NCBI GenBank assembly: GCA_021295675.1
Contig: JAGWBY010000052.1
Coordinates: forward strand, 1-25,054
Length of the DNA: 25,054 nucleotides
Direction: 5' to 3'
Origin: Candidatus Latescibacterota bacterium
GTDB lineage: Bacteria; Latescibacterota; UBA2968; UBA8231
Of the stretch, positions 145-21,964 are shown in pieces. Every line of letters begins with the position of its first letter. The stretch's first letter is position 1. The notes beneath the pieces are model-generated. The model searched no databases. It saw only the letters and a list, made by a program, of their open reading frames with translations, and had not been told where the DNA came from. The translations under genes and the position numbers were made by a program.

Positions 145-854
145 ATGGCTACGGCCTTTGCCCTAGTGGGCGACCGCTATCACACGTCTGATTACATCCG
201 CACGGCTTTGAGCCGCACCTTGGTCCAAGGCATGGGATTGTCCATTGATTTTACCGACGAGATCACCCTGCTCAACGCCCAACATTTGTCGAGCTATCGG
301 TTGCTGATCGTCTTCCGCGACGGCATGATCTGGCCCAATGGCTACGGCATAGAGGCTGCGTCCGTTAGCGAGCCGCCCGTCGAGGCTGAGGAATCCCGTC
401 CCGTGCAGTGGATTACCGAGGACCAAGGCCGCGCTGTGCGGAACTTTGTGGAGGCGGGCGGGGCGGCTCTTTTCTACCACAATTCCACGTACATCGCCCC
501 GGGCAGCAGCGACTTCCGCCATGTGCTAGGCGCTGCTACGCAAGGGCACCCGCCGGTGCGTCCCTACCGAGTTCACATAACGCGCACAGATCACCCCATA
601 ACGCGCGGCGTGGAGGACTTTGTCGTCGAGGACGAGCAGCACTTCATGCAGTACGACAAGGATCCAGCCCATGTCCTAGCCGTCAGCGTCAACGACGACG
701 GGGCACCACGTGCGAGGCGGCTTGGGCGTACGAGTACGGCGCGGGCCGCGTGTGCTATTTATCACCGGGACACACCATCCCCGCGCTGTGGAACCCGTCC
801 TACGAGAAGTTGCAACAAAACGCCGTGCGCTGGCTGTTGCGCGACGACTTGTAG
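145..854 (+). CDS. ThuA-like domain protein, frame broken near 700-715
   Basis: The N-terminal part (MATAFALVGDRYHTSDYIR) and the body with EAGGAALFYHN and DHPITRG look like the ThuA (trehalose utilisation-like) family, which has a glutamine amidotransferase-like fold and often accompanies sugar metabolism genes. The ATG at 145 is preceded by a strong GGAGGA at 131-136. After NDDGAP the reading frame loses similarity. The family's C-terminal block, with WAYEYGAGRVCYLSPGHT, continues in another frame and stops at 852-854. A one-frame shift around 700-715 joins the parts into about 236 residues, a normal ThuA length. Without the shift, translation would run on to 1020 with an unrelated tail. 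The substrate is unknown. The gene is either an assembly error or a pseudogene. Confidence 0.72.
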
Positions 855-934
855 AGGTGCTCGACAGCTAACGTATCCTGCCAACCTTTTCCCAAGACAG
901 TGGCGATTGATGACGAACGCGTCGATTGGTGGAA

Positions 935-3120
935 TCAATTGCTCGACAGTGTTGATTCCAATAGAATGGCTTGTCCCGCTTCCAGCACCGCGCCGACTTC
1001 GCCGCGCAGCCGCTCCTTGAGCGTGGTGTAGCGCTGGGCGACCTTGTCGTTGGCAATGGCCAGCTTGAGGGCCTTGGGAGTGCCGACGATGACAATCATT
1101 TGCTTGGCGCGGGTAATCGCCGTGTAGAGCAGGTTGCGCTGTAGCATCACGTAGTGCTGCGTCGTCAGTGGCAGCACCACCACGGGAAATTCCGACCCCT
1201 GAGAGCGGTGGATGCTGATGGCGTAGGCGAGGGTTAGCTGGTCGAGATCGGCCTGATCGTATTCTAGGGTGTAGTCAAAGCGCACGTAGAGCACTTGCTT
1301 TTCCGCGTCGAGCCGCTCGATTGTGCCGATGTCGCCGTTAAAAACGCCCTTGTCGTAGTTGTTTTTGACCTGCATGACTTTGTCGCCCACCCGGAACTCG
1401 GCTCCGCGATGGCTATGCACTTGGCCGTGCGGATTGAGGCGCTGTTGCAGCCGCTGGTTGAGATTGAGCGCGCCGGTCTCGCCGCGGTACATGGGCGCAA
1501 GCACTTGGATGTCGTTGCGCTGATCCCATCCTCGATAGCTGGGCAGCCGCGTGGCGCACAACTCCTCCACCTGCTCGACCACCCGCTCTGGGTCGCCTTC
1601 TTGGATGAAGTAGAAATCCGCGTCTGCTTGGTTCTCGACGATGGGCATTTCGCCGCTGTTGATGCGGTGCGCGTTGCGGATGATGTGGCTTTTTTGCGCT
1701 TGGCGAAAAATCTGTGTCAGGCGCACCACCGGCACTGCGGCGGAGTCGATGATGTCGCGGAGCACATTGCCCGGCCCCACCGAGGGCAGCTGGTCGATGT
1801 CGCCGACTAGCACCAGCCGAACGTGGTCGGGCAGGGCGCGCAGGAGCGCGTTCATCAGCACCACGTCGATCATGGAAGCCTCATCAACGATCAGCGCATC
1901 GACTTCGAGGCGGTCGTCGTAGCCCTTTTTGAATTGCCGCTCGCCTGGCTGAAATCCCAACAGCCGATGAATGGTCTTGGCCTCCCGCCCGCTGGCCTCG
2001 CTCAGCCGCTTAGCGGCGCGGCCCGTAGGCGAGCACAGCGCGACCTTGAGGCCGCCTTCCTCCAATAGGCGCAAGATGCGCCGCGTGACCGTAGTCTTGC
2101 CGGTGCCCGGCCCGCCGGTCAGCACCAGCACCTTGCTCGTGGCGACTAGCTCCACGGCCTGTTTTTGCGCCGGAGCTAATTCCAGCTCGTCCTCCGCTTC
2201 TGCGGGCACGACCAATTCTTCGGCTGGCGTGCGCAAAAGCCGTTTTAGCGACGATGCCGCACCCACTTCGGCGCGATGGAGCGGCGGCAAATAGCAGCGC
2301 AGGTCTTCGGTGACCACGCCGTCGTTGGCGCGCAGGGCCTCTAATGCCGGCGGCAACAACTCGGCGTTAATGTCCAAAATTTCGACGGCCCCCGGCAGCT
2401 CCATCGTTCCAACGGCCGGCAGCTCCATCGTTCTAACGGTCGGCAGGTACACATGACCTTCGTCGGCTGCTTCGGAGAGCAGGTAGCGGATGCCGGCCTG
2501 TACGCGTGCGGGTGCGTCGCGCTCCATTCCCAAGCGCTGGGCAATGCGGTCGGCGATGCGGAAGCCGATTCCATCCACATCGCGCTCCAAGCGATAGGGA
2601 TCGCTGCGGACTTTTTGGATGGCCTCTTGGCCGTAGGTCTTGAAAATTTTTACCGCGTAGCCGGTGGTGATCCCGTGCGACTGCAAAAAGACCATCACGT
2701 CCTTGATTTGCCGCTGCTCGTCCCAAGCCGCGGCAATCAGCTCGACTCTCTTTTTGCCCAGCTTGGGCACTTCCTCTAGATGATGTCGAGCGTTTCCGCG
2801 CCAAAGTGCTCAACGATGCGCTTGGCCGACCTCGGCCCGACGCCTTTGATCAGACCGGACCCGAGGTACTTTTGTATGCCTTCGAGGGTCGAGGGATAAA
2901 CGGCCTTATAGTGCTCTACCTTGAACTGTTTGCCGTATTTGGGATGATTGGTCCACACGCCTTCGACTTCGACGCTTTCACCCTCTTGGATGGAGGCAAG
3001 CGTCCCCACGATTGCGATCCGCTCGCGCTGGCCCTCTACTACTAAGCGCGCAATGGTATAGCCGTTTTCCGGGTTGTGGTAGGTCAGGCGATCTATAAAG
3101 CCCTTATACGATTGGTTCAT
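935..3120 (-). CDS. recD2: RecD2-type ATP-dependent DNA helicase, frame broken near 2765-2780
   Basis: This is a superfamily 1B 5'-3' DNA helicase of the RecD2/YrrC type, acting in DNA repair and replication. The first part (3120-2776, ATG start) has the N-terminal domain and a helix-hairpin-helix around LIKGVGPRSAKRIVEHFG, then hits TAG after AETLDII. The second part (to 935) resumes in another frame at EVPKLGKKR and carries all the motor motifs: Walker A GGPGTGKTT, Walker B ALIVDEASMID, VGDIDQLPSVGPGN, LTQIFRQ, and the UvrD-like C-terminal SIHRSQGSEFPVVVLP with LLYTAITRAK. The two parts sum to about 725 residues, usual for RecD2. Family members generally have several more residues between the two hairpins, so a small deletion may have caused the shift. 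A GTG at the restart could allow a separate 611-residue product. The gene is the last of the minus-strand run, 9 bases after the PAP2-like gene. Confidence 0.88.
2392..2439. repeat. Two tandem 24-bp copies inside the RecD2 gene
   Basis: Two adjacent 24-base copies occupy 2392-2415 and 2416-2439. They differ at one base (C/T at 2410 versus 2434), and a partial third copy starts at 2440. The repeat is in frame and duplicates eight residues, visible as TMELPAVGTMELPG, in the region before the ATPase core. Confidence 0.85.
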
Positions 3121-3129
3121 GTGCTGCGC

Positions 3130-3719
3130 TCACCAGATGAAAGCACTGTACAGCAGGGCCATACTCCCCGCGCCCAGCGCGCCGCCCGCGCCGACCTGCA
3201 TGGGAGTATGCGCCCGCCCGGCCAACTCAGCAAAAAGGGCCACGCTGCGCTGCCGACGCTGATCAACAATACGCAGGTCGCTCCCCCGACACCAGCCGCG
3301 TGAATGCTGATCTTATAGGAGCGATTGATCCACCAGACTAAGAGCGTGTTGACGACACAGGCCGTGGCCGTGACCAGCATCAGAGGCGGAGCATTGATCC
3401 CGTAGAGGGCCGCTCCCCCCAAAGCGTAGCAAAGAGCGCCCAGCAAGAGCAGGGTAGCGCGTTTGTTGCGGTCGTCTGTATAGGCTTTGTCGAGATAGCC
3501 CGAGCGCACTAGGCACCAGAGCAGCAACCCGGGTACCAAAGAGAAAGTGCCGATTGCCACCGAGCCGGCGAGCCAGTCGCCCAGCACGTGCGCTTGGACG
3601 CCGAAGACCAACAGCGCCAACAGCGCGGGATTGAGCAAGTGGGAGAAAAAACGTGCGACTGGGTGCAGACGAAAACAGGGACGAGCTAATTGCTCGCCCC
3701 TGTTTGTTTCTTTTGCCAT
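3130..3719 (-). CDS. PAP2-like integral membrane protein, frame broken near 3230-3260
   Basis: This is a small multi-pass membrane protein with hydrophobic segments such as NPALLALLVFGV, VPGLLLWCLV and LLLLGALCYALGG. The motif WWINRSYKISIHAAGVGG matches the KxSxHaxG block of distant PAP2 phosphatases. A last block with AELAGRAHTPMQVGAG, like the terminal R-(x5)-HT-x-x-Q block of that family, is encoded in a different frame and ends at a TGA at 3130-3132. One shift around 3230-3260, where an A5 followed by G3 lies at 3232-3239, rejoins them into about 196 residues. Left uncorrected, the frame runs to 3117 with an arginine-rich tail. The ATG at 3719 overlaps the PqqD-domain gene by 34 bases, so a later start is possible. 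PAP2 proteins dephosphorylate lipid phosphates or diphosphates; the substrate here is unknown and the canonical KX6RP motif is not clear. Confidence 0.62.
3673..3705. terminator. Hairpin spanning the stop codon of the PqqD-domain gene
   Basis: Arms of 14 bases at 3673-3686 and 3692-3705 are complementary except for one position (a possible G-U pair in the minus-strand transcript), with a 5-base loop. The TAG of the PqqD-domain gene starts in the loop. On the minus strand only TTTT follows, so termination would be partial. The hairpin could instead be an attenuator or RNA-stability element before the PAP2-like and recD2 genes. Confidence 0.5.
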
Positions 3720-5012
3720 TTTTTTCCGCTAGCCGCGCCGCGGTCGGGCGGCCTCTCATCGCCCTCTAGCACGAAGCCGATAAAGCGCTTCTGCCCAAGG
3801 GTCTTCAGATACTGGAGCAGGGAGACCTCGGCCTCCTTGCGATTGAGCTGGTACTTGTCGCTGAGCTCTTCGATCATATCGCCGACCGAGTTGCGGCCAT
3901 TGCACATCCGCCAGACTTCGCTGCCGACCTCGTCGAGGGTGATTTTGCGCTGCTTGGGGATGTAGAAAAACTTGGACAACAGCCGCACCCTCCAGGTCTC
4001 TTGGCGCGCTATGAAGACCTGGACCTCGTCGTTGTCGTTGTTTTCCCAGCGCAGGGACTCATTGCGCGTTGGCCGCGACGCCAGCATGGTCCCTTGTTTT
4101 TTGATAAAATGCCCATCTACTACCTTGGTGACTAGATCGTCTGCTGCATCTTTCTTGCGGTAGAGGTGCTCGACGATTGCGATCTTGTCGATGCTGGTAT
4201 CGCGCCAGACGCGTCCCCGCAGATACAGGCGCGGCCTCGGGTTCATAAAGGGCAGCGGACGCAGTAGCTGACGCCAGCGGCTGCGCGGCCGCCCCTCGAC
4301 GCGAATGCCCTCGTGTTCCTGCACGGCTTCTGGAGCAAAAGTGTTTCTTAAAAAAGACCGGATACCAGTCTTGAATGTGCGCGTCTTTGAGCATGATCCG
4401 GGCCATGCTCAACCGATGCACCTTTAAAACTTGTTTGCCGAGAGAAAACTCTAGCTCGATGTGACCCGACTTGAGGGAATGGCTTTGTAGCTTGAGGTCG
4501 TTGGGCGCGAAAAACCGCAAGCCGTACACGCTCCACAGATGAGCGTCCTCGGCTTCTTGATCGACGAGCGAGCTGAACACGGCCTCGGCTTGCTCGGGCA
4601 AAAACTCGTCTAGCTTGGCCAGCACTCGCAGGAGCACTACCCGCCCGGACTTCAAGGCGAGCGCTAGGTTGTATGCGCGGAAGTCGGCCTCCCAGATGAA
4701 AACCTCGTATTCGCGGCCTTCGAGGAATTTTTTGTTCTTGAGGAATCGGGCGCGGCGCTGAACCTCAAAGGGGGCATCGACCTTTTGGGCCTTCTTTTCT
4801 AGGTTGGCCAAGTAGCGATCTACCAACTCGGTCAGACGCAGGGCCTCGCCGCGGCCTTTGAGACGCCGCCATTCGATCTCGGCCCGCACGATTTCGGCGT
4901 CGTCGAGGCGGGCATAGCCCTTTTCAAAGTCCCCGTCAACCCGGCCGAGATTCCAGTCGTCAGGCACGGACAACCGCAGTCCTTGCCAAGCAAAATCCAC
5001 CCGATCGCTCAT
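3686..5012 (-). CDS. PqqD-domain protein with uncharacterised N-terminal half, frame broken at 4350-4355
   Basis: The protein starts MSDRVDFAWQGLRLSVPDDW at ATG 5012, one base after the stop of the upstream transporter gene. Its first ~220 residues are soluble, with no signal peptide, and I do not recognise them. After WYPVFF the frame is lost. Removing one base of the A6 run at 4350-4355 restores a natural continuation (FAPEAVQEHEGIRVEGRP) and a total of about 441 residues. The C-terminal part, roughly residues 350-415 after joining, is a PqqD-like domain: KITLDEVGSEVWRMCNGRNS followed by IEELSDKYQLNRKEAEVSLL. PqqD-like domains bind leader peptides of ribosomally made peptides and pass them to modifying enzymes, but no radical SAM enzyme or precursor is visible here. 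It probably works in the cytoplasm with the adjacent transporters. Confidence 0.78.
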
Positions 5013-5013
5013 A

Positions 5014-7440
5014 CTAGAAGATCAGCACGGAGACCGATTTCTGGATTAGGGCAACCCCCACCGACGCCATGCCCATCAGCGCCATGCCGCAGGCGAAGCC
5101 CACCGCCAGAACCGGGGCAAACTGCCGCCACTCCTGCCGCCCGTACTTGTTCCAAAAGTAGTAGCGAGCCAAGAGCGCGCCGATGATCTCGGTCACCACG
5201 TAATGCGGCAGAATCGTCAGCGAGCGCACGAAGCCAAAGATCAACAGGATCGGCAGCCCGAGTATGGAGAGCAGAATGAAGCTCACTATCCCGAAGCCAG
5301 CACCCAAGGCGATGACCTCTGGTTTCAGTGCCCTAAAGAGCCAAGGCACGTCGGTGGAGCGCTGAATCCAAGAACTGGTAAAGAGCGGATCGGTATCGAC
5401 CTCGAAGTAGAAAGACCACCCCGCTGGCACGGCTCGTTCGACCTCCACTTCAAGGGTCGGGCGGGGATCGCGGATGATGGTGTCCATCGCTGGCCCCAGT
5501 GGCGCAATCGTCGGCAGGCCCTCGACAACTTGCTCTCCAGCTAGCTGCTCGTCGCGCAGGTAGCGCTCGGCGACGATGTCGGGTGCCCCTTGATCGAAGT
5601 ACGAGTAGAAAACTTGGGTCGGCATCCACGGGCCAACTTGGCCTCGCTTGCCGCTGGAGTCCAGCCACTCCTGATCCACTAGCCGCACTCGCCAGTACCA
5701 CCACTCGTTTTCGATCAGGTTAGCCGGAGTCCATCCCGCCCGATCGTTGTCTATGGCCAGTTCGCTGCGCATGGTGCCGGTGATAAAGAGACATTGCTGG
5801 TAGGCGCGCAGCCGCCACATGAGCTGGGCATAGGGGTAGGAGGCCGAGGGGATTGGTGCTAGTTTCCAGATATAGGAGCCGTAGAGAAAACTGGTAAAGA
5901 GCACGATGGGTACCATGAAAATCTCGGCGCGGATGATGCTGGTAAACTGGGTGCCGGTCAATTCGATTTCGCGGAACTTCTGGGTCTGGGCACCGTAGTT
6001 GCCCAAGGGAAACGGAATGAACCAGATGTCAACACCGCGATACCCAGAGAGAATAACCGTGGCCTCGCGCACGAAGGGAATGTCCACCGTCTGCCCTACC
6101 ATCCCGACGAGGCGAGCGTTGACAAACGACTGAAAGGGCGTGAATACGAAACCAAAGAAGAGGAAGAACCATACAAATTGGGCAATGCCCGGCAGCAGCC
6201 AAGCGGCGATGCCGATCAGGCCGGCCGTGGCTAAGGCGTATAGTGCCAACGCCACCCAGATGGGGAAATCGCCGCGGCCAGCGGGGGTGGCGAAGCCGCG
6301 CTTGGGCTTGCTATCATCCCCGTTGCCGTTGTTAGCCCTAGCCTTGCGCACGCTCTGAACTATCTGATAAATGCCGATGGCGGCGATGGCGAAGGTAGTG
6401 CCGAGGCCGAAACTCATCCAGAAATCGACGTAGTTGACGAAGTAGGTCTCGATCGTGCCCATGCCTTGCTGCCACAAGTTCAGGTATGGCTCCTCGCGCC
6501 ACGAAGGCGTCCAGGTGTAGAGCAGCGGGTTGGCAACGGCGGCGGCGACTAGACCGAGGAAGGTGCCAACCACGCCCCAGAACGGCAAGACTAGCCCGGC
6601 AAAGATCGGTCCCAAGTGCGCGGTAAACCCCAGCGGGGTGGCCGGGATAAAGTTGCCGGTGACTTGGGTGAAATCGACAAAGGGAATGGGTATGAGTTGG
6701 ATCGGCTCGGTCAGCAGCGCCCCCGTAATCGCCGGCAAGGCCACGTAGATTGTGCCAAAGACTAAGCCGATCATCGCCCCTGCCGAAAATACCCGCCAGC
6801 GCCACGTCTCAACCCCTTGGGTGGTCTCGGCCAGTGCCGTAGCGCCTTGGGCGTTTACGGGCGCGAAGGGAAAGGGTAGGCGCTCGTAGTCGGAGGTGAG
6901 CCGGAAGAGCGCGTACGACATGGTGAACCAGTTGATGCGCCAGATGATCATCCCCAAGACTAGGAGTACGATCGGCATCGCCCAATCCGAGTGCAGGAAA
7001 GTCCGTTCGATGATGGCGGAGGAGTCGGGCTGCGGTGCCACCCAGCCGGGGATCAGCTTGGCGATGCCAAACTGCTTGGCCGCTGGCGATTGCACCAAGT
7101 ACTGGTTGTAGAGCAAGCCTTCAAAGGCACCAGTCTCAGCGGCAATCAGCGAGCCGGCCACGTAGAACAGCACATAGACTTCTTGGCGCCGGAGGGAAGA
7201 AAAGGAGCGCTTGGTGATTTCGGCGAAGAGGATGATGGTCACCCACTCGGCCGCCGCCCCCAAAGAGCCGCCGATCATCAGGCTCAAGTACATGTTGCCC
7301 GGCACCATGATGAAAGCGACGAAGAGCACGCCGAGGATGGCCTTGATCGTAAAGCCGTTCTCGAAGCGGTCCGGGACCTGCATTAAGTCCCGATATTCTT
7401 CGATCTCTTGGTTCGGATTTCTGTTTTTGCTTCCGAGCAC
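5014..7440 (-). CDS. OPT-like multi-pass transporter with an extracytoplasmic insert
   Basis: This is an 808-residue membrane protein that begins with a GTG at 7440, supported by GGGAGG at 7448-7453 and placed right after the stop of the FtsX fusion gene. Over a dozen hydrophobic segments are visible, for example ILGVLFVAFIMVPGN, VLLVLGMIIW and FVWFFLFFGFVF. The layout resembles the OPT-like peptide transporter/DUF6785 group, and the protein looks like a distant relative of the transporter at 12198-14119. About 150 soluble residues (roughly 555-707) sit before the last helices. They contain WWYWRVRLVDQ and later FYFEVDTDPLF, which resemble strands of fibronectin type III-like domains. The frame is intact. 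OPT proteins import peptides or metal chelates using ion gradients; the substrate here is an inference only. No ATPase domain is present. Confidence 0.75.
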   Translation of the reverse strand: MLGSKNRNPNQEIEEYRDLMQVPDRFENGFTIKAILGVLFVAFIMVPGNMYLSLMIGGSLGAAAEWVTIILFAEITKRSFSSLRRQEVYVLFYVAGSLIAAETGAFEGLLYNQYLVQSPAAKQFGIAKLIPGWVAPQPDSSAIIERTFLHSDWAMPIVLLVLGMIIWRINWFTMSYALFRLTSDYERLPFPFAPVNAQGATALAETTQGVETWRWRVFSAGAMIGLVFGTIYVALPAITGALLTEPIQLIPIPFVDFTQVTGNFIPATPLGFTAHLGPIFAGLVLPFWGVVGTFLGLVAAAVANPLLYTWTPSWREEPYLNLWQQGMGTIETYFVNYVDFWMSFGLGTTFAIAAIGIYQIVQSVRKARANNGNGDDSKPKRGFATPAGRGDFPIWVALALYALATAGLIGIAAWLLPGIAQFVWFFLFFGFVFTPFQSFVNARLVGMVGQTVDIPFVREATVILSGYRGVDIWFIPFPLGNYGAQTQKFREIELTGTQFTSIIRAEIFMVPIVLFTSFLYGSYIWKLAPIPSASYPYAQLMWRLRAYQQCLFITGTMRSELAIDNDRAGWTPANLIENEWWYWRVRLVDQEWLDSSGKRGQVGPWMPTQVFYSYFDQGAPDIVAERYLRDEQLAGEQVVEGLPTIAPLGPAMDTIIRDPRPTLEVEVERAVPAGWSFYFEVDTDPLFTSSWIQRSTDVPWLFRALKPEVIALGAGFGIVSFILLSILGLPILLIFGFVRSLTILPHYVVTEIIGALLARYYFWNKYGRQEWRQFAPVLAVGFACGMALMGMASVGVALIQKSVSVLIF

Positions 7441-7453
7441 TCGCTATCCTCCC

Positions 7454-10400
7454 TTACGCCGACACTTCGCTGCGCAGCCCTTGTAGAATTTCCACGCCCT
7501 GTTGGCGGTAGCCTTCTTTGGCCTCGGCATCTACCGTGCGCCAGATAAGGAACTGTTTGCGGATGACGTTCATAAAGCGCTGGTTGACTCGCCGCCACGA
7601 GGCGTCCTCGCCGCTGAGCCGCTTGATTTGTAGGCTGACCGCGTAAATGTTGTGCTCGGCCTCTGGCATGGCCCGCACGGTGACGTGTTGGCTGACACCC
7701 AAATCGAACGGAGCCAGCCAGATATTCATGTCGATAATGTATCCTTCGCCGTTGGGCGTTTCTTCGCGGCTTAGCTGGGCACCGTCGGTGTAGAAGGTGC
7801 CGATGGACTCTTCGCTGTAGGGCTCAAGCCCAAGACCTCGTGACCGCTGACTGTAAAGGGGAACTCGAAATCCCACTGGTCGCCGTCGGGCGGCGGCAGT
7901 TTCCACTTGCGGGTCACGTCCGGCACGGCCATTTGCGAAGCCTTGCGCGCCGGATAAATCGTCGAGAGCATGACCACGGCCATCACCAGCATACAGGAGA
8001 GCACCGCGGCCACCGAGGAATAATTGAGCGTGAAGCCGCCCAAAAGGTCAAATTCGATGAGCACTTTGGCGATTACTTGGCCGCTGAGATAACCGGCGAC
8101 CACGCCTAACACCGAATAGACGCAACTCTCGGCGATAAAGAGCCATGAGATGTGGCCAGGGGCTAGGCCCACCGAAGAGTAGATGCCGATTTCGCGGAAG
8201 CGCTCGTACACGCTGCCCATCATGGTGTTGAGCACGATTAGTGAGGCGATCAGCATGGGGATGAACAAGTTGCTCATCCCGGAAAAGGAGGTCATGCCCA
8301 GCGATGAATAGATCGACACCTTGATGTATTCATCGCCAGCCTCCTTGACTCCGGCAAACAGCGTTACCGCGAGGCGCGAGAGGAACTCCTCGACCTCGCC
8401 GCGCACATCGCTGCCCTCGGGGAAGCGCACGGCTACCGACTGTAGTGGGTTGCCGCTGCCGACGTTGCGCAGCGTGTGGTAGGGAATAATCAGGGTGTTG
8501 GCTGGCTCTATGTGGACGAAGGGCTTGATGACGACTTTGGCGTCCTCCAGACCTTGTTTCTCGCGCTGTTCTTCTTCGGCTATTTCCTGCACTGCCTGAC
8601 CGCCGGTGACAGCGAAGTCGGCTGGCGTCAGAATTTCGTCGTCTAGGTCTTTGAGGTCCTTCATGCGCTTAGAATCGATGACGCCCACCACCGTGAACAA
8701 GTCGCCGAAGACCCTGACTTTTGCTTGACCAACGTCGGCCAAATCGACATCGAGATGGGCTTCCTTGACCATGTCGATGGGCAGGATGCAGGCCTTGTCT
8801 TCACCCGGCTCAAACCAACGTCCGGCGACTATGGCTTGGCTGAGCCGAGTGACTTGAGTCTCTTCGGGTGCTAAACCTAGTACGCCGAGCGCGTTATGGG
8901 CCTTTTCCCCGTGTTTTATTTTGATGTGTGCCTTGGCCTTGTTGCTGTACCAACTGCGCGGCGCGACCGCGGCCCGGTCGCCGAAATTGCTGCGGGCGTA
9001 TTCGAGGACTGAATCCTCCATGGGATTCCACGCCTTGCTGCGAATGAGGATGCCCTCGTAGAGACCCTCGTTGTCGCGGCTGATTTGGTTGAATCGCAAG
9101 CCCGTGCGGATGGAGGTGAAAGAGAGCACTGTGAACGTCAGTAGCAAGAGCGTGGTAAAGGTGAGGACCGTACGCGTCTTGCGCCGTTTCATGTTGGAAA
9201 TCCCGAGCTGGAAGGCCGTCAGCGAGGCCGAAGAGCGGCTGACGTCCGTGTCGTGGATCACGGCTACCTCGGTGCGCAGCTTCTTCATCTGCTCGTTAAA
9301 GCGGCCGGAAATGATCGACATCACCAGCACTGCCAAGGCGATGATGATAAAGGCCAACAGAATGACGAAGGGATTGGATAGCTGAAAGGCCGGATGCACC
9401 AGCCACAACACTATCCAAATCGCCAGAAAAACCCCGGCGAATCCGATGATTTGGTTGCGGATCGTGGCCGCCGTAAAAATGAGCCGCTCAGTAAAAAAGG
9501 CGCAGGGAATGACGAGGGCCATGAAGAAGATAATGCCCTGGATGACGTCGTTCTGGGTAGATTTGACGTCTGGATAGGCGCGCGATTCCAGCCCGAAGGC
9601 CGCGCGCGTGTGACGCACGAAATCGCCCCAGCGCTGCTCGGTCTCAGCCTCGGCGGCTTGGGCCAGCTCGGATTCGGCGCGATAGTGGAGGTCGTTGAGG
9701 CGCTGGTTCTCAATGGCAAAGCTCCGCAACTCGCGCATTCGCGACTCGTCGAGATTCCACATGTCTTGGGCGGCTTGAAAGGTCGTGCGGGCAAAGGAAG
9801 TACCGGGGCGGATCTCAAAACCCTCGCCTTCGGCCTTTTCTTTGTCGGTTACGCTGGTGGCGTTGAGCAGGAGCGAGCGGAATCCCAACAGGCCAGCACC
9901 GAACCCCATCTTGATGTGCGAACCGGGCCGTGCAAAGAGCACCCCGACCGGCTCATTTTGGGCCGAGGGGCCTTCGCCGATGGTATAACCGTACTCCACA
10001 GGTGGGCCGTTCGTTTCGTCGAAGACCTGCACATTGGACAGCTTGGTCAGATAGCGCGGATCGACGATGTCGAAGAAGTTGTAGGGCACGCAGGGGAAGA
10101 GGATGACCATCCACTGCTTATCGCGCCAGTCCATGGCGACCCGCATGGGGTAACTTTCGTCGCCTTGCACGCCGCGGTCAGGGGCGTAGGTGATGCGGCC
10201 GGTGATCGGGTCCATGTAGTAGCCCTCGATCTGCACGTTGTTGACCCGCACCCGATTTATGTAAAAGGCCCCTTTATCATCGACGACCTCGTAGTACTCG
10301 CCGCGCACGCCTTTGTACGACTTTTTCTTGCCGTTGCGCACGACGGCCACTGCGTCTGCACGCGGTAGGTCGGGGATGATGCTGCGGCGCGGAAAGACCA

Positions 10401-12180
10401 TGGTGCGACCACGCAGCGAGCGCAGCGTGTCGCGCAGGCGCATCTTGAAGTCCGGGAAAAGCTCAGGGTCTTCAAAGGCCATCTCGAACATGCCGGCGAG
10501 CACCCGGATCTGTTTGGCGAGATTGGCGTAGTTGACGTGTTCGGCCCGGTCTAAGGGCGTATCGACGAGGAAGCGCGCGTCGTTGACAGTGACAAAAGCC
10601 AATGCCGGCGTACCGGTCGCCAATACCAATTCGCTGTTGACTGATATTTCGCCCGGCACAAAGGTCTGCCAGCTCATTCCGCCTTCGGGACTGATACCAT
10701 TGACCAGCACGTCGCGCTGCTGGTAGCCTAACTCGCGGCTGATCTTGCGCGCATAACCCATGAAATTCTTGCCGAAAGGCGCGAAGTAGCGCTTGTAGTA
10801 AAAGCTGGTATTGCTATTCCAGACTCCGAGCTCGTCGGTCTGCGACGAAAGGTCGAGACTGATAAAGAGCTTGACCGCGAGTGAATCGACTTTGGGGTCA
10901 GCCCAAGTTTTGTAGAGCGCCAAGCGCAAGTCGTCGTCTGAGCGCAAGTCGTCAACCAGTTCGCGGCGATCTTTGAATTGCTCGTTGGCGAGGTTTAGTG
11001 TACCTCCTTCTTGGCTCAGCAGCCCTTCGGCGAGTGCAGCGTCGGCAACGCGCGAGGCCAAGTCGGTACGCCCTTCGGCAACGCCCCGCACGAGGGCTTC
11101 CTTACTGGTGAACTCCTCCTCGCCGATGGCGTAGTGGATGCCGTCTTGGACTATCATGTTCCGCGCGAGTGCAGCATCGACGACCCGCCTCACCAGCATG
11201 TGCTCGATAAAGGGATCCTCTTTGCGCAAATAGCGCTGGATGAAATCATCAACCCCGCGCAAGCCCAAGTGGTGGGCCGAAGTGGCGAGGAATACGACCG
11301 TGCGCGCCGGCGGGTTTTCGCGAAAGTAGCGCGCCAGTTCCAACAGCGCAGTAATGCCTGAGGCTTGCTCGGCACCTGGGGCAAGGGCCGGCACGACCGA
11401 CATGGCGTCGTAGTACGCCTCTAGCACGATCACGTCCTCTTTTAGCAAAGGATCGTAGCCGGGGATCGTGCCGAGGATATTCCAAGCGGGACGCCGCTCC
11501 CAATCCATGCGGTACTGTAGGTGGAGCGTCTGCTCGCCCTCGGTCGCCAACTGGCGACGCAAGTGCTGACCTGCTTGGCGGTTGACCCAAAACCTCGGCA
11601 GGTCGAGCGGCATGGAGAGGAATTTCTTTTCGCCCTCCAAGTACACGGTGGAGTCCGGCTCGATAAAGATGATAGCTTGCGCCCCGAGGTAGGCGGCATT
11701 GAGCCAGGCGTCACCGGAATTGAAGTCCATCAGGGCCACAGCCCCTTCGACTTGCTTGCCCTCCATGTCCGCGTACTCACCCGCGCCAGCGTCGATCAAG
11801 TGCTTGGTCATCCCGCCTTCGGGCAGCGTCGAGGTTTTGACGAGGTTGGGCCACAGGCCGTGGATTGGCACTTGTTCGTCACTGCCAACTATTTGCAGAA
11901 ATCCGCCCTTATCGACCGGAATAGAGACATCGTATTCGTGGACTGTGACGTCGTCGAGACCGATGGCGCGGAAGCGCTCCTGCACGATCTGGGCTGCTTG
12001 GTCGGCACCTCGATAGCCGGCAACTCTAGACCCCAAGCCGGCAAAGGTGTCCATCGTTTGCTGCACGCGCTCGACTGGGGCCGTGCGCGCCAACTCAGCA
12101 AAATCGACTTCGGTCCAAGCCGGTGCTGCGCCGACCAAAATCCAGCCGAAGACCATCCACCACATCGCGAACTTAGGCAT
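7454..12180 (-). CDS. M28 peptidase-like domain fused to FtsX-like permease, frame broken near 7822-7845
   Basis: The start is ATG 12180, giving a signal peptide (MPKFAMWWMVFGWILVGAAP); the frame is open further upstream, but those residues do not look natural. Residues ~30-560 resemble a secreted M28 aminopeptidase with a PA-like region (AAYLGAQAIIFIEPDS). The usual HxD, GAxD and EE zinc sites read YYDA (256-259), PGAEQASG (268-275) and AHHLGLRG (302-309), so it is probably inactive. Residues ~320-430 hold two related helical repeats (VVDAALARNMIVQDG and VADAALAEGLLSQEGG). The C-terminal half is an FtsX/MacB-type permease with one helix block near the middle, a soluble domain and a final membrane block. 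The frame breaks near the end: after FPFTVSGHE the natural tail (LGLEPYSEESIGTFYTDG) continues in another frame to TAA 7454-7456, for about 1575 residues. No partner ABC ATPase lies in the window. Confidence 0.83.
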
Positions 12181-12197
12181 AATTGTAAGTGCCTTTC

Positions 12198-14119
12198 TTA
12201 GATCCAGAAGACCACATTGTCGGTCATGCCCGTAAAAAAGTCGATAATCAACCAAAGCCCCGCGATGAAAAACTGGCCTATAATTAGTCCTAAAAAGAAA
12301 GGACGCGCCCGGCGAAAAAGGCTGGGGCCGCCGTATTTCATCGCCAACAATTTTAAGAGCCAAGCGAGGGCAATGCTAAACCACAACTGGTCCATCAGCC
12401 ATACGGCACCAATGGGGTATCCAATGGGATGCAAAGGCCACCACAAGAGCTGCTGGCGCGCCCACATGAGCAGGGCCATGATGCATCTATATTCGGCTCG
12501 GTAGGCGCGCTTAACTTGGTGGTAATATAATCAAAAGGGGCGCGAGTTCCACCACCAAAAAACCACGCGTTGAGGTTGATGCCGCCGTATTCGTAAGCGA
12601 GGTGCAAAATCGCTACGACCGAGCCGACAATGCTGACAAAAATCGCCAGCAGCATGTACCAAAAAAGCGGCCGCAGCCCTAGGCCCTCACCCAATTTGAG
12701 TCCGTGTGCGCAGGAAGCCATAACAAACGTGCGGATATCTGCCGCCCACACGAACGTGTATGCGAGGCCGACCATGCCGGCCGGGCCGATCGCCGAAGAG
12801 CCGACAGCCGAAACTAAGACCGTCGGAGAAATCATCGGTCCGACTGCCGCGGCCACTCCTCCTTCTGCTACCACTCGAGTTAGGCCGACGAAGATAACGA
12901 TGGCCAGCATCACGGTCAAAAAGGCCGCCCACAGCGGCAAGCCAGACTGCCACAGCCAGATGGTCATCACCGCGACACCGGAGAGCCAAGTTAAGACCGC
13001 CGTCCGATAGGAGAGCATCTCGCCGCTGTCGTCGATGCGGTCGTCGCCTCGGAATGCCTTGCGCAGCACGTCGCGCAGGTGCTCGCGGCCGACCCACAGG
13101 CCGAAAAGCACTAAGACGATCATCGCGCCCTGCCCTTGATGGGCGAGAATTGGCTCGCTAGAAGCGCCGTAAACGAGCTTTTCGGTGCTGCCAACCCCTA
13201 AAACCCCCAGCCCCCCTCGGATCAGCTTGGCGATGGTGTTGAAAAACCATAGGCTGAAGGCAATGTCGAGGTTGATCAGATAGGCGAACCCGATCATGGG
13301 AAAGCTCAGACGGAAGATCAGGCTGACGGTGTTGCGCAGGATCGGAATCGAAGAGACGAGCTGGATGGCGGGGATAAAGTTGAAGTATGCGTGTAGGGCG
13401 TTGAGGCTGCTGACGAACACGGGCAAGGCAAAGCCAACCCACATGATTGGATTTTTGAAGAAAGGGCCTAGGGCTTCTCTGCGGCCTCCGCTCTGCACCA
13501 TGGCCAAGGGCACTTGCACCAGCGGATAAACTAGCCGCTCTCGCTCCACCCACTGGCGGCGCATAATGACCATAGACGAGATCATCACCAAGTACAGGGC
13601 TACAATCAGAATGGCCCAATAGCACAGCGGACCGCTCCAAGCGGCCCAAGGCACCCCAGCGGTGCGCGGTGCTCCTTCGTAAAACCACTTGATCGCCTCG
13701 GGGTCCTGCGGGGTAATCCACTCGGGAAGGTGCGGTAGGATGAGCAAGGCCCACTCGTTTTCCGGGGTGGCGTAGTACTGGGCACCGGTGATGATCGTTA
13801 GCCAGTACTCACTCAGGCCCATCGTCGGGATGGCCGAAGCCGTGAGCATCATAATGTACGCGACGATTAGCTCGCAGCGTCCGAGGGCCACAGGGGCGGC
13901 AAAGCGCATCAGCAAGGCGTTGAACAAGCCCGTCAACAAGAAGAAAAGGAACAGGGCACCTGCAGCACTGAAATCAATCGACATGTAGGAGCCACGGATG
14001 ACCATGTTGCCGTACGGTGCTCCCACGGCGATGCACAGCGACCCTAGGGTACCCGCTACCAGTGCTTTGGCGCTGAAGACCGGTTCGGTTTGCAAGGTAG
14101 GCTTTTGGGGCAAGTCCAT
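12198..14119 (-). CDS. DUF6785/DUF6784 OPT-like transporter, frame broken near 12480-12497
   Basis: This multi-pass membrane protein of about 640 residues after joining starts at ATG 14119. The first part has about a dozen hydrophobic segments and motifs such as SMVIMRRQWVERERLVYPL and GLTRVVAEGGVAAAVGP, typical of the DUF6785 group related to OPT transporters. After PTEPNID the frame is lost. The family's C-terminal block (DUF6784-like), with ARQQLLWWPLHPIGYPIG and RRARPFFLGLIIGQF, follows in another frame and stops at a TAA at 12198-12200. A one-frame shift near 12480-12497 unites them. It lies 36 bases after the Gx-type gene and 17 bases before the M28-like/FtsX gene, consistent with cotranscription. 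The transported substrate is unknown; peptides are suggested only by distant OPT similarity. Confidence 0.8.
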
Positions 14120-14155: not shown

Positions 14156-14668
14156 TTAGTCCAACCAGCCTATTTTCGCCAATTGTTCCAAGGTCCACCA
14201 AGCCAACAGGCCGATCGCCCCTCCGCTCACCAGAGCGCTGAACAAGGCCAGCGGCAAAAGTGCGAACAGGCCGCTGTGGCCGATATAGCCAGCGGCGAGA
14301 ACGAGTTGGCTGAGCTGGTGCGCCAACGCGCCCCAGATGCTCAGACCCACGACGCTGAAAAGCCGCGTTCCCATGCGGCGCACCGCAACCATGACCAACC
14401 AACTCGCCAAGCCAGCCCCGCCGCCGATGACAAAAGCCGGACCGGCAAATCCCCCACTGAGCAAGCCGCCAACTACCAGCTTGATGGCACTAACGGCCAA
14501 TGCCGGACCGCCGCCAAAGCTCACTAACGCGACTAAAACCGGCAAATTGCCGAGTCCCAACTTCATCCAAGGCAAGGGTTTGGGCACCAGCGATTCAAAG
14601 GTGAAGAGCACAATTGCCGCACTGGCCATAAGCCCCAAACGGGCCACGTTTCTCGGGTGGGTAAACAT
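14156..14668 (-). CDS. Gx transporter / HepS component I-like membrane protein
   Basis: This intact 170-residue membrane protein has about five helices. LGLGNLPVLVALVSFGGGP and GGLLSGGFAGPAFVIGGGAG match the family named heptaprenyl diphosphate synthase component I, now often called Gx transporter family, which resembles ECF-type substrate-binding membrane subunits. Its ATG (14668-14666) shares one base with the TGA of the upstream NusG II-like gene, so the two are translationally coupled. The same pairing of a NusG II-like protein with a Gx protein is common in other bacteria, often near Rnf or FMN-binding genes, which are absent here. The substrate is unknown. No component II (polyprenyl synthase) is in the window, so a direct role in isoprenoid synthesis is not supported. 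Confidence 0.82.
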   Translation of the reverse strand: MFTHPRNVARLGLMASAAIVLFTFESLVPKPLPWMKLGLGNLPVLVALVSFGGGPALAVSAIKLVVGGLLSGGFAGPAFVIGGGAGLASWLVMVAVRRMGTRLFSVVGLSIWGALAHQLSQLVLAAGYIGHSGLFALLPLALFSALVSGGAIGLLAWWTLEQLAKIGWLD

Positions 14669-15057
14669 CAGTGAATCATCGCGTCTATGGGCGCGGCACC
14701 AGCGATCCTCAGCACTAGACTATTGGGCACGCACGCGGCCACGTCGCCTGCCCACTGCATCCAGCCCCGCCGCATGCAAATTTTGTGAATGCAGGGTGCG
14801 GAAAGTACGCGCACGCCCTTGGGGCCGATCTCGATCTGGCTCGCGCCCAAAGGTCCTACAACCGGCAAGACCCCGTAGTTTGAGAGGGCATGCGTGGCGG
14901 GCGCGGCCCCAGCCAGCTCGACGATGAGCACGCCGCCGACTTCGGCTGTATAGCGGCCGTAGAGTATCAGCCCGATCGCACTCAAGCCCACGACGAGCGC
15001 GAGGATTTTATCCGCTCGCGTCAGCACCGGTGCGTTTTCGGTATTTAGCCACCACAT
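14668..15057 (-). CDS. NusG domain II-like membrane-anchored protein
   Basis: This 129-residue protein has one N-terminal membrane segment (ILALVVGLSAIGLILYG), so it is probably anchored with the rest outside the cytoplasm. The block PKGVRVLSAPCIHKICMRRG followed by AACVPNSLVLRIAG is the signature of NusG domain II-containing small proteins; three cysteines lie in it. The start ATG at 15057 has AAGGA about six bases upstream. It is the first gene of the minus-strand run, and its stop overlaps the Gx-type gene. The biochemical role of this family is not established; association with small-molecule transport or redox complexes is inferred from its usual neighbours. Confidence 0.82.
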   Translation of the reverse strand: MWWLNTENAPVLTRADKILALVVGLSAIGLILYGRYTAEVGGVLIVELAGAAPATHALSNYGVLPVVGPLGASQIEIGPKGVRVLSAPCIHKICMRRGWMQWAGDVAACVPNSLVLRIAGAAPIDAMIH

Positions 15058-21887: not shown

Positions 21888-21964
21888 TGGTGGGCAATCG
21901 CAGATTTGAACTGCGGACCTCCGGTATGTGAGACCGGCGCTCTAACCAACTGAGCTAATCGCCC
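21888..21964 (-). tRNA. tRNA-Val(CAC)
   Basis: A complete 77-base cloverleaf with encoded CCA. The acceptor GGGCGAT pairs with ATTGCCC (one G-U). The D arm is GCTC/GAGC, the anticodon stem CCGGT/ACCGG holds loop CTCACAT with anticodon CAC (valine, GUG), and the T arm is CGCAG/CTGCG with TTCAAAT. No promoter box is evident in the 19 bases after the FG-GAP gene, so it may be processed from that transcript. Confidence 0.96.

What the first reader, a model, noticed from the sequence alone, without database searches (positions are those of the whole stretch)
3686..14119. Candidate undescribed envelope system: two OPT-like permeases, a pseudo-peptidase/FtsX fusion and a PqqD-domain protein
Four adjacent same-strand genes with gaps of 1 to 17 bases encode an OPT-like DUF6785 permease, an M28-like/FtsX fusion, a second OPT-like permease and a PqqD-domain protein. 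Three unrelated families (OPT, M28, PqqD) usually deal with peptides, and no known pathway I can name combines them. I infer a peptide-sensing or peptide-moving complex: the dead M28 domain binds outside, the permeases move or signal, and PqqD binds inside. The role is unproven.
Basis: partly seen in the sequence, partly recalled or inferred. Interest (0 to 1): 0.72.

Follow-up and report, generated by a model that had tools for sequence, protein, structure and literature searches.

The report
Undescribed ABC motor with OPT permeases
The genes are part of an apparently undescribed, widely conserved bacterial membrane machine in which an ATP-driven motor of the MacB/LolCDE type, carrying a dead peptidase on its outer side, is tied by gene order, co-occurrence and a gene fusion to OPT-type permeases; what it moves or senses is not known.

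Summary
The 'M28/FtsX fusion' is one half of a Type VII (MacB/LolCDE/FtsX-class) ABC permease carrying a pseudo-M28 domain. Partners found in relatives: a ~230-aa 'mini-FtsX' and a LolD/MacB-like ATPase. In two relatives all seven families lie in one same-strand run (OPT-A, M28-FtsX, OPT-B, a PsbP/Mog1-fold protein, PqqD, mini-FtsX, ATPase), with two small extra genes after OPT-A. In the window's phylum 56 of 64 genomes have one mini-FtsX; the ATPase adjoins it in 36 of 37 loci checked, mostly away from the other genes. In Hydrogenedentota (68 genomes), all 14 with M28-FtsX have mini-FtsX and all 52 without mini-FtsX lack M28-FtsX. Four single-contig genomes hold 7, 7, 3 and 3 M28-FtsX but one mini-FtsX each, suggesting a shared motor. 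Two genomes fuse M28-FtsX to OPT-A. The window's own genome could not be searched, so its motor is inferred. A peptide role is not shown. The mechanism (ATP-driven outer arm working the OPT permeases) is inferred.

The parts
12201..14119 (-). OPT-A: DUF6785 permease with a DUF6784-type end; reading frame cut by a 28-base deletion near 12484
   Evidence: PF20581 419.8 bits; profile end 552-632 found in another frame (converted from reverse-complement coordinates); relative L001 has DUF6785 and DUF6784 in one frame
7454..12180 (-). M28-FtsX: pseudo-M28, transthyretin-like domain, extra TM helices, FtsX/MacB half-permease with MacB-type periplasmic domain, cytosolic C-terminal domain; cut by a 25-base deletion near 7821
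   Evidence: Pfam; 48-sequence active-site table; AF2 model of the C-half of relative L001 and fold searches; start codon
5014..7440 (-). OPT-B: second permease, 808 aa, intact
   Evidence: 2287 homologues among 7999 scored candidates; loci in many groups; one of 4 relatives with a sub-threshold PF03169 OPT match
4059..5012 (-). PsbP/Mog1-fold tandem protein (called PqqN here), cytosolic by lack of TM or signal; cut by deletions near 4338 and 4089
   Evidence: hydropathy; AF2 pLDDT 86 on relative L065 and fold searches
3686..4116 (-). PqqD gene (start approximate, from relative L022), reading into the previous gene's frame because of the 19-base deletion
   Evidence: PF05402 43.8 bits; separate ~143-aa gene in relatives

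Best explanation
The genes encode most of an inner-membrane machine of the Type VII ABC superfamily built from seven conserved families. M28-FtsX is one large permease half; mini-FtsX (about 230 aa, FtsX core with almost no outer domain) is the likely other half; a LolD/MacB-like ATPase drives them. Shown: conserved gene order, co-occurrence, an M28-FtsX/OPT-A gene fusion, MacB/LolC-class fold, intact ATPase motifs, uniformly altered M28 site. Inferred: ATP binding and hydrolysis swing the outer arm (pseudo-M28, transthyretin-like and MacB-type domains), which holds a ligand in the remodelled M28 pocket and hands it to, or gates, the two OPT-type permeases. PqqD and the tandem PsbP/Mog1-fold protein act inside as docking or chaperone subunits on the motor. 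In the window's phylum one mini-FtsX/ATPase motor, encoded elsewhere, is probably shared by several M28-FtsX/OPT modules.
For: All seven families in one same-strand run in L163 and L164, with two small genes between OPT-A and M28-FtsX; six in L165, where OPT-A would lie off the contig; L068 likewise without OPT-A. Mini-FtsX (E up to 1e-35) in 21 of 23 further OPT-B-bearing genomes. ATPase next to it in 36 of 37 loci of the window's phylum and 27 of 30 elsewhere, those three misses lying near contig ends. Patchy phylum of G010 (68 genomes): mini-FtsX 16, M28-FtsX 14, DUF6785 15, the latter two nested in the first, Fisher p 1e-12 to 4e-14, uncorrected for kinship. M28-FtsX beside an OPT gene in 33 of 34 sampled loci, 25 of 26 if the 8 loci first reached through OPT-B are left out, against about 0.17 expected if about 60 DUF6785 copies were scattered. 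Fusion ORFs of 2129 and 2111 aa (L103, L114). FtsX half matches HrtB, YtrF, MacB, LolC/E, FtsX, YbbP. ATPase motifs intact in 6 of 6 examined. FtsX motif ER.REIG-type in 75 of 82 M28-FtsX and 64 of 85 mini-FtsX, redundant sets, by a simple pattern. Copy numbers 7, 7, 3, 3 M28-FtsX against 1 mini-FtsX and 1 PqqN in four single-contig genomes.
Against: No functional data. The window's own genome is not held, so mini-FtsX and ATPase are shown only in relatives. Mini-FtsX is missing in 3 genomes of the phylum with M28-FtsX (G013, G025, G051) and in G069 and G082, where a relaxed search shows only generic FtsX hits. Two genomes have mini-FtsX without M28-FtsX at the cut-off (G112, G146), though PqqD and ATPase adjoin it there. 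OPT-B stands without nearby M28-FtsX in 8 loci (L017-L019, L029, L042, L048, L051, L064), some with little upstream sequence; L146 has M28-FtsX without an OPT. L142 has mini-FtsX without the ATPase nearby. Genomes with several mini-FtsX exist (G078 five, G081 three). Mini-FtsX could pair with itself. Related genomes are not independent samples. No complex was modelled.
Confidence: 0.55

Rival explanations
1. Extraction machine: like LolCDE or YbbAP-TesA, the ABC part pulls a lipid-like or membrane-bound compound out of the inner membrane and the pseudo-M28 arm receives it; the OPT proteins are carriers for the product or merely co-transcribed.
Against: Gene fusion and near-constant OPT neighbours suggest that OPT proteins are integral.
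Confidence: 0.22
2. One reading: a peptide-sensing or peptide-moving complex in which dead M28 binds peptide outside, OPT proteins move it and PqqD binds peptide inside.
Against: NCBIfam PqqD peptide-chaperone cut-offs are not met. No precursor peptide or maturase was noticed beside the operon, but none was searched for systematically. Neighbours of other DUF6785 copies are mixed, with sulfatases, GFO/IDH/MocA oxidoreductases and an aldo/keto reductase among 20 proteins scanned, which is only weak evidence.
Confidence: 0.13
3. Sensor: a BceAB-S-like arrangement in which ligand capture by the outer arm is read by PqqD and PqqN inside to set the activity of OPT carriers.
For: BceAB-type systems couple Type VII ABC to a membrane partner (PMC12646458 passages); the cytosolic C-terminal domain has invariant residues across 43 sequences.
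Against: No kinase or regulator was noticed among the shared neighbours, though these were not all annotated.
Confidence: 0.1

Closest known systems
MacB / LolCDE / FtsEX (Type VII ABC)
   Same: FtsX permease fold, MacB-type periplasmic domain, LolD/MacB-like ATPase
   Different: Asymmetric halves: one of about 1500 aa with pseudo-M28 and extra helices, one of about 230 aa; recurrent OPT, PqqD and PqqN partners. Whether MacA- or LolA-like partners exist was not searched
YbbAP-TesA
   Same: Type VII ABC paired with an outer hydrolase fold and extra TM helices (PMC12646458, passages)
   Different: Here the hydrolase-like domain is an M28 relative, fused and catalytically dead, and OPT permeases are partners
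Group II ECF transporters (recalled)
   Same: One motor per genome apparently shared by several substrate modules
   Different: FtsX-type permease fold instead; sharing here is inferred from copy number only
OPT / DUF6785 carriers
   Same: OPT-A is a DUF6785-DUF6784 protein
   Different: Known OPT carriers are proton-coupled and work without an ABC motor (recalled); here they accompany one

Membership tests
Type VII ABC superfamily | FtsX-type 4-TM permease fold with MacB-type outer domain | tested here: met
Type VII ABC superfamily | Cognate LolD/MacB-type ATPase with intact motifs | tested here: met
   In relatives only; not testable in the window's own genome
Type VII ABC superfamily | ATP-driven mechanotransmission | not testable with these tools
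   needs biochemistry
M28 peptidase (active) | Metal-binding His and catalytic Glu-Glu pair | tested here: not met
   0 of 48 sequences keep either Glu (positions 367-368: H 47, N 1; F 26, H 14, G 6, C 1, Y 1); first His is Y 39, F 5, H 4; bridging Asp is E 44, D 3, A 1 (register from the alignment). Ligands in the C-terminal half of the M28 fold were not assessed
OPT family PF03169 | Pfam score above cut-off | tested here: inconclusive
   Of 4 OPT-B relatives scanned, 1 matched OPT at 19.7 bits (cut-off 25.8); window OPT-B none
DUF6785 | PF20581 above cut-off | tested here: met
   419.8 bits, cut-off 25
PqqD domain PF05402 | Pfam score above cut-off | tested here: met
   43.8 bits, cut-off 23.4
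PqqD peptide chaperone of RiPP or PQQ pathways | NCBIfam equivalog or exception cut-off | tested here: not met
   6 families matched, none at its cut-off, e.g. 30.1 bits against 100 (TIGR04302), 29.4 against 46 (TIGR03859)
Shared-motor transporter (ECF-like) | One motor serving several modules | tested here: inconclusive
   Copy numbers fit; physical sharing untested

The most novel reading that the evidence does not exclude
A new class of ABC-energised OPT transporter: a single mini-FtsX/ATPase motor per genome plugs into several M28-FtsX/OPT modules, each with its own pseudo-M28 receptor arm, so that ATP-driven mechanotransmission powers or gates OPT carriers. It would be an ECF-like shared-motor logic in a Type VII ABC system.
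Probability: 0.35. Interest if true: 0.88.

Novelty: new variant of a known kind. Interest (0 to 1): 0.72.

Why it matters
It joins two transporter superfamilies that the paper searches listed here did not find linked (OPT and Type VII ABC), gives a context to DUF6785 and DUF6784 (no paper in the held library names either), explains a conserved dead M28 domain as part of an ABC arm, and offers a testable shared-motor idea. It occurs in many uncultured groups, including Latescibacterota, Armatimonadota, Planctomycetota and Hydrogenedentota.

Tried and rejected
Not supported: RiPP or PQQ maturation (PqqD cut-offs not met). Rejected: active M28 peptidase. No near match in the plasmid collection. 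Considered and dropped: the broken PqqD ORF as programmed frameshifting, because relatives have two ordinary overlapping genes and the window has deletions. Profiles of OPT-B and PqqN against PDB sequences gave nothing useful. Paper searches that gave 0 papers: DUF6785, three of five terms FtsX, M28, OPT family, Latescibacter, Hydrogenedent, 'FtsX-like permease' with 'peptidase M28', PqqD with FtsX, DUF6784, FtsX with 'M28 family' and 'ABC transporter permease'; two of three terms Latescibacter, OPT family, oligopeptide transporter gave 75 papers, of which the 20 listed show no Latescibacter occurrence. This covers only the open library held. Eag papers were seen as a search listing only; PMC12646458 as passages. 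The helix-grip-like match of the C-terminal domain is weak and was not pursued alone. M28-FtsX counts per genome are limited to 8 scored candidates and inflated by fragments, so only four single-contig genomes are quoted for copy number; one search scored at most 45 candidates per genome. L107 was fetched as a candidate M28-FtsX locus and turned out not to be one; it is not counted. Small ORFs were not scanned for precursor peptides.

Full report
1. What is in the window. Minus-strand ORFs encode a DUF6785 protein, an M28/MacB_PCD/FtsX protein, an 808-aa membrane protein and a PqqD-domain ORF. The window has no whole genome in the collection. It aligns at about 92-93% nucleotide identity over roughly 15-17.6 kb with loci L022, L065 and L001, whose titles read Latescibacterota or Gemmatimonadota/Gemmatimonadetes. 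Against L065 it lacks seven stretches of 19-28 bases, with at most 2 bases of microhomology, near 702, 2779, 3217, 4089, 4338, 7821 and 12483; those inside the finding split OPT-A, M28-FtsX, PqqN and PqqD. The PqqD ORF is two genes in relatives: a ~330-aa protein (here PqqN) and a ~143-aa PqqD.

2. Neighbourhood conservation. A search with OPT-B gave 2287 homologues among 7999 scored candidates. One scan of genome contigs kept 80 of 106 loci, with record titles naming Latescibacterota, Armatimonadota, Planctomycetota, Kiritimatiellota, Hydrogenedentota, Omnitrophota, Lentisphaeria, Desantisbacteria, Coatesbacteria, FCPU426 and others. M28-FtsX lies within 3 kb upstream on the same strand in 65 of 79 loci with at least 150 bases upstream. 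Of the 14 others, L045-L047 have OPT-A between and M28-FtsX further up, L037, L039 and L040 are short contigs with OPT-A next to OPT-B, and 8 have neither. OPT-A is nearby in 26 of 42 loci with at least 9 kb upstream; PqqD is within 4 kb downstream in 22 of 56 and mini-FtsX within 4.5 kb in 8 of 56 loci with at least 2.5 kb downstream.

3. The missing motor. Loci titled Hydrogenedentota, Kiritimatiellota, Desantisbacteria and others showed two further genes downstream: a ~230-aa FtsX protein and an ABC ATPase. The mini-FtsX profile gave one strong hit (E 1e-69 to 1e-77, next about 1e-20) in each of 8 genomes of the window's phylum, each adjoining the ATPase. In that phylum 56 of 64 genomes have exactly one at E up to 1e-40. 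In the 37 loci fetched from it, the ATPase adjoins in 36, PqqD lies immediately upstream in 4 and an OPT gene in 0; in 30 loci from 21 other genomes the figures are 27, 15 and 11. L163 and L164 carry all seven families in one same-strand run. Between OPT-A and M28-FtsX they hold two further same-strand ORFs, of about 70 and 240 aa, not annotated. L165 lacks only OPT-A, at the contig start. The six ATPases examined have all motifs sought.

4. Co-occurrence. In 64 genomes of the phylum: mini-FtsX 56, M28-FtsX 58, DUF6785 59, PqqN 56. Mini-FtsX and M28-FtsX: both 55, neither 5, only M28-FtsX 3, only mini-FtsX 1, Fisher p 4e-5. In 68 genomes of the phylum of G010 (L071, titled Hydrogenedentota) the sets for mini-FtsX, M28-FtsX and DUF6785 are 16, 14 and 15, the latter two nested in the first. 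Kinship was not corrected for. Of 23 further genomes with OPT-B, 21 have mini-FtsX. A relaxed search of five genomes that have M28-FtsX or OPT-B but lacked mini-FtsX shows only generic FtsX hits (E 1e-15 to 1e-21).

5. Copy number and fusion. M28-FtsX has 7, 7, 3 and 3 copies in the single-contig genomes G001, G002, G049 and G050, each with one mini-FtsX and one PqqN. Of 34 M28-FtsX loci examined in the phylum (7 in G001, 7 in G002, 20 more in L146-L165), 33 have OPT-A or OPT-B nearby; L146 does not. Eight of the 34 had first been reached through OPT-B; without them it is 25 of 26. In G001 and G002 one copy is fused to OPT-A in a single ORF (L114, 2111 aa; L103, 2129 aa). Not every genome has one motor: G078 has five mini-FtsX and G081 three. 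DUF6785 itself is multiplied: 39 of 64 genomes reach the limit of 19 scored matches, with up to 60 first-look candidates, and 0 of 14 control genomes match. Eleven loci of G002 holding 14 such ORFs were fetched, and 20 neighbouring proteins scanned at E 1e-5. They are a mixed set: two sulfatases, a sulfatase-modifying-factor-like protein, two GFO/IDH/MocA oxidoreductases, an aldo/keto reductase, PhyH, a Na/Ala symporter, two FG-GAP/ASPIC proteins and others, 3 without a hit. This gives no sign of peptides, and only a weak hint of carbohydrates.

7. Mechanism. Type VII ABC systems transmit ATP-driven motion to the outer side and are defined by their partners (PMC12646458, passages seen). By that logic the partners here are the pseudo-M28 arm and the OPT permeases. 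That the arm works the permeases, and that one motor is shared, are inferences from fusion, gene order and copy number. Biochemistry is lacking.

8. Verdict. The finding is real and more interesting than stated, with a different core: an ABC motor. Novelty is placed at 'new variant of a known kind', because the motor is squarely Type VII while its composition was not found in print by the searches listed.

Noticed in passing
window 702-12483: Seven deletions of 19-28 bases with almost no microhomology relative to relative L065, none in the aligned stretch beyond 12.5 kb; assembly artefact or gene decay, unexplained.
   Followed up: partly
L103 (7193-13579, minus) and L114 (5667-11999, plus): Natural single-ORF fusion of M28-FtsX with a DUF6785 permease in two single-contig genomes; open frames of 2101 and 2143 aa in G003 and G004 may be the same.
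   Followed up: partly
L163 11617-12563 and L164 2206-3364: Two same-strand ORFs of about 70 and 240 aa between OPT-A and M28-FtsX, similar in both loci by eye; possible further subunits.
   Followed up: no
Latescibacterota genomes, e.g. G002: Large multiplication of DUF6785: 39 of 64 genomes at the scoring limit of 19.
   Followed up: partly
window 14156-15057: NusG_II-domain and heptaprenyl-diphosphate-synthase component I genes directly upstream, kept in this order in many relatives.
   Followed up: no
L005 4050-5210 minus: A gene that looks like flagellin by eye (no family search) in opposite orientation between PqqD and the PAP2-like gene; its ORF cluster occurs in 11 loci.
   Followed up: no
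G078 (L168, L187, L192, L194, L195): A genome titled Kiritimatiellota with five mini-FtsX copies, several beside OPT, M28-FtsX or PqqD genes, so the one-motor rule is not universal.
   Followed up: partly
window 21888-21964: tRNA-Val (cac) on the minus strand.
   Followed up: no
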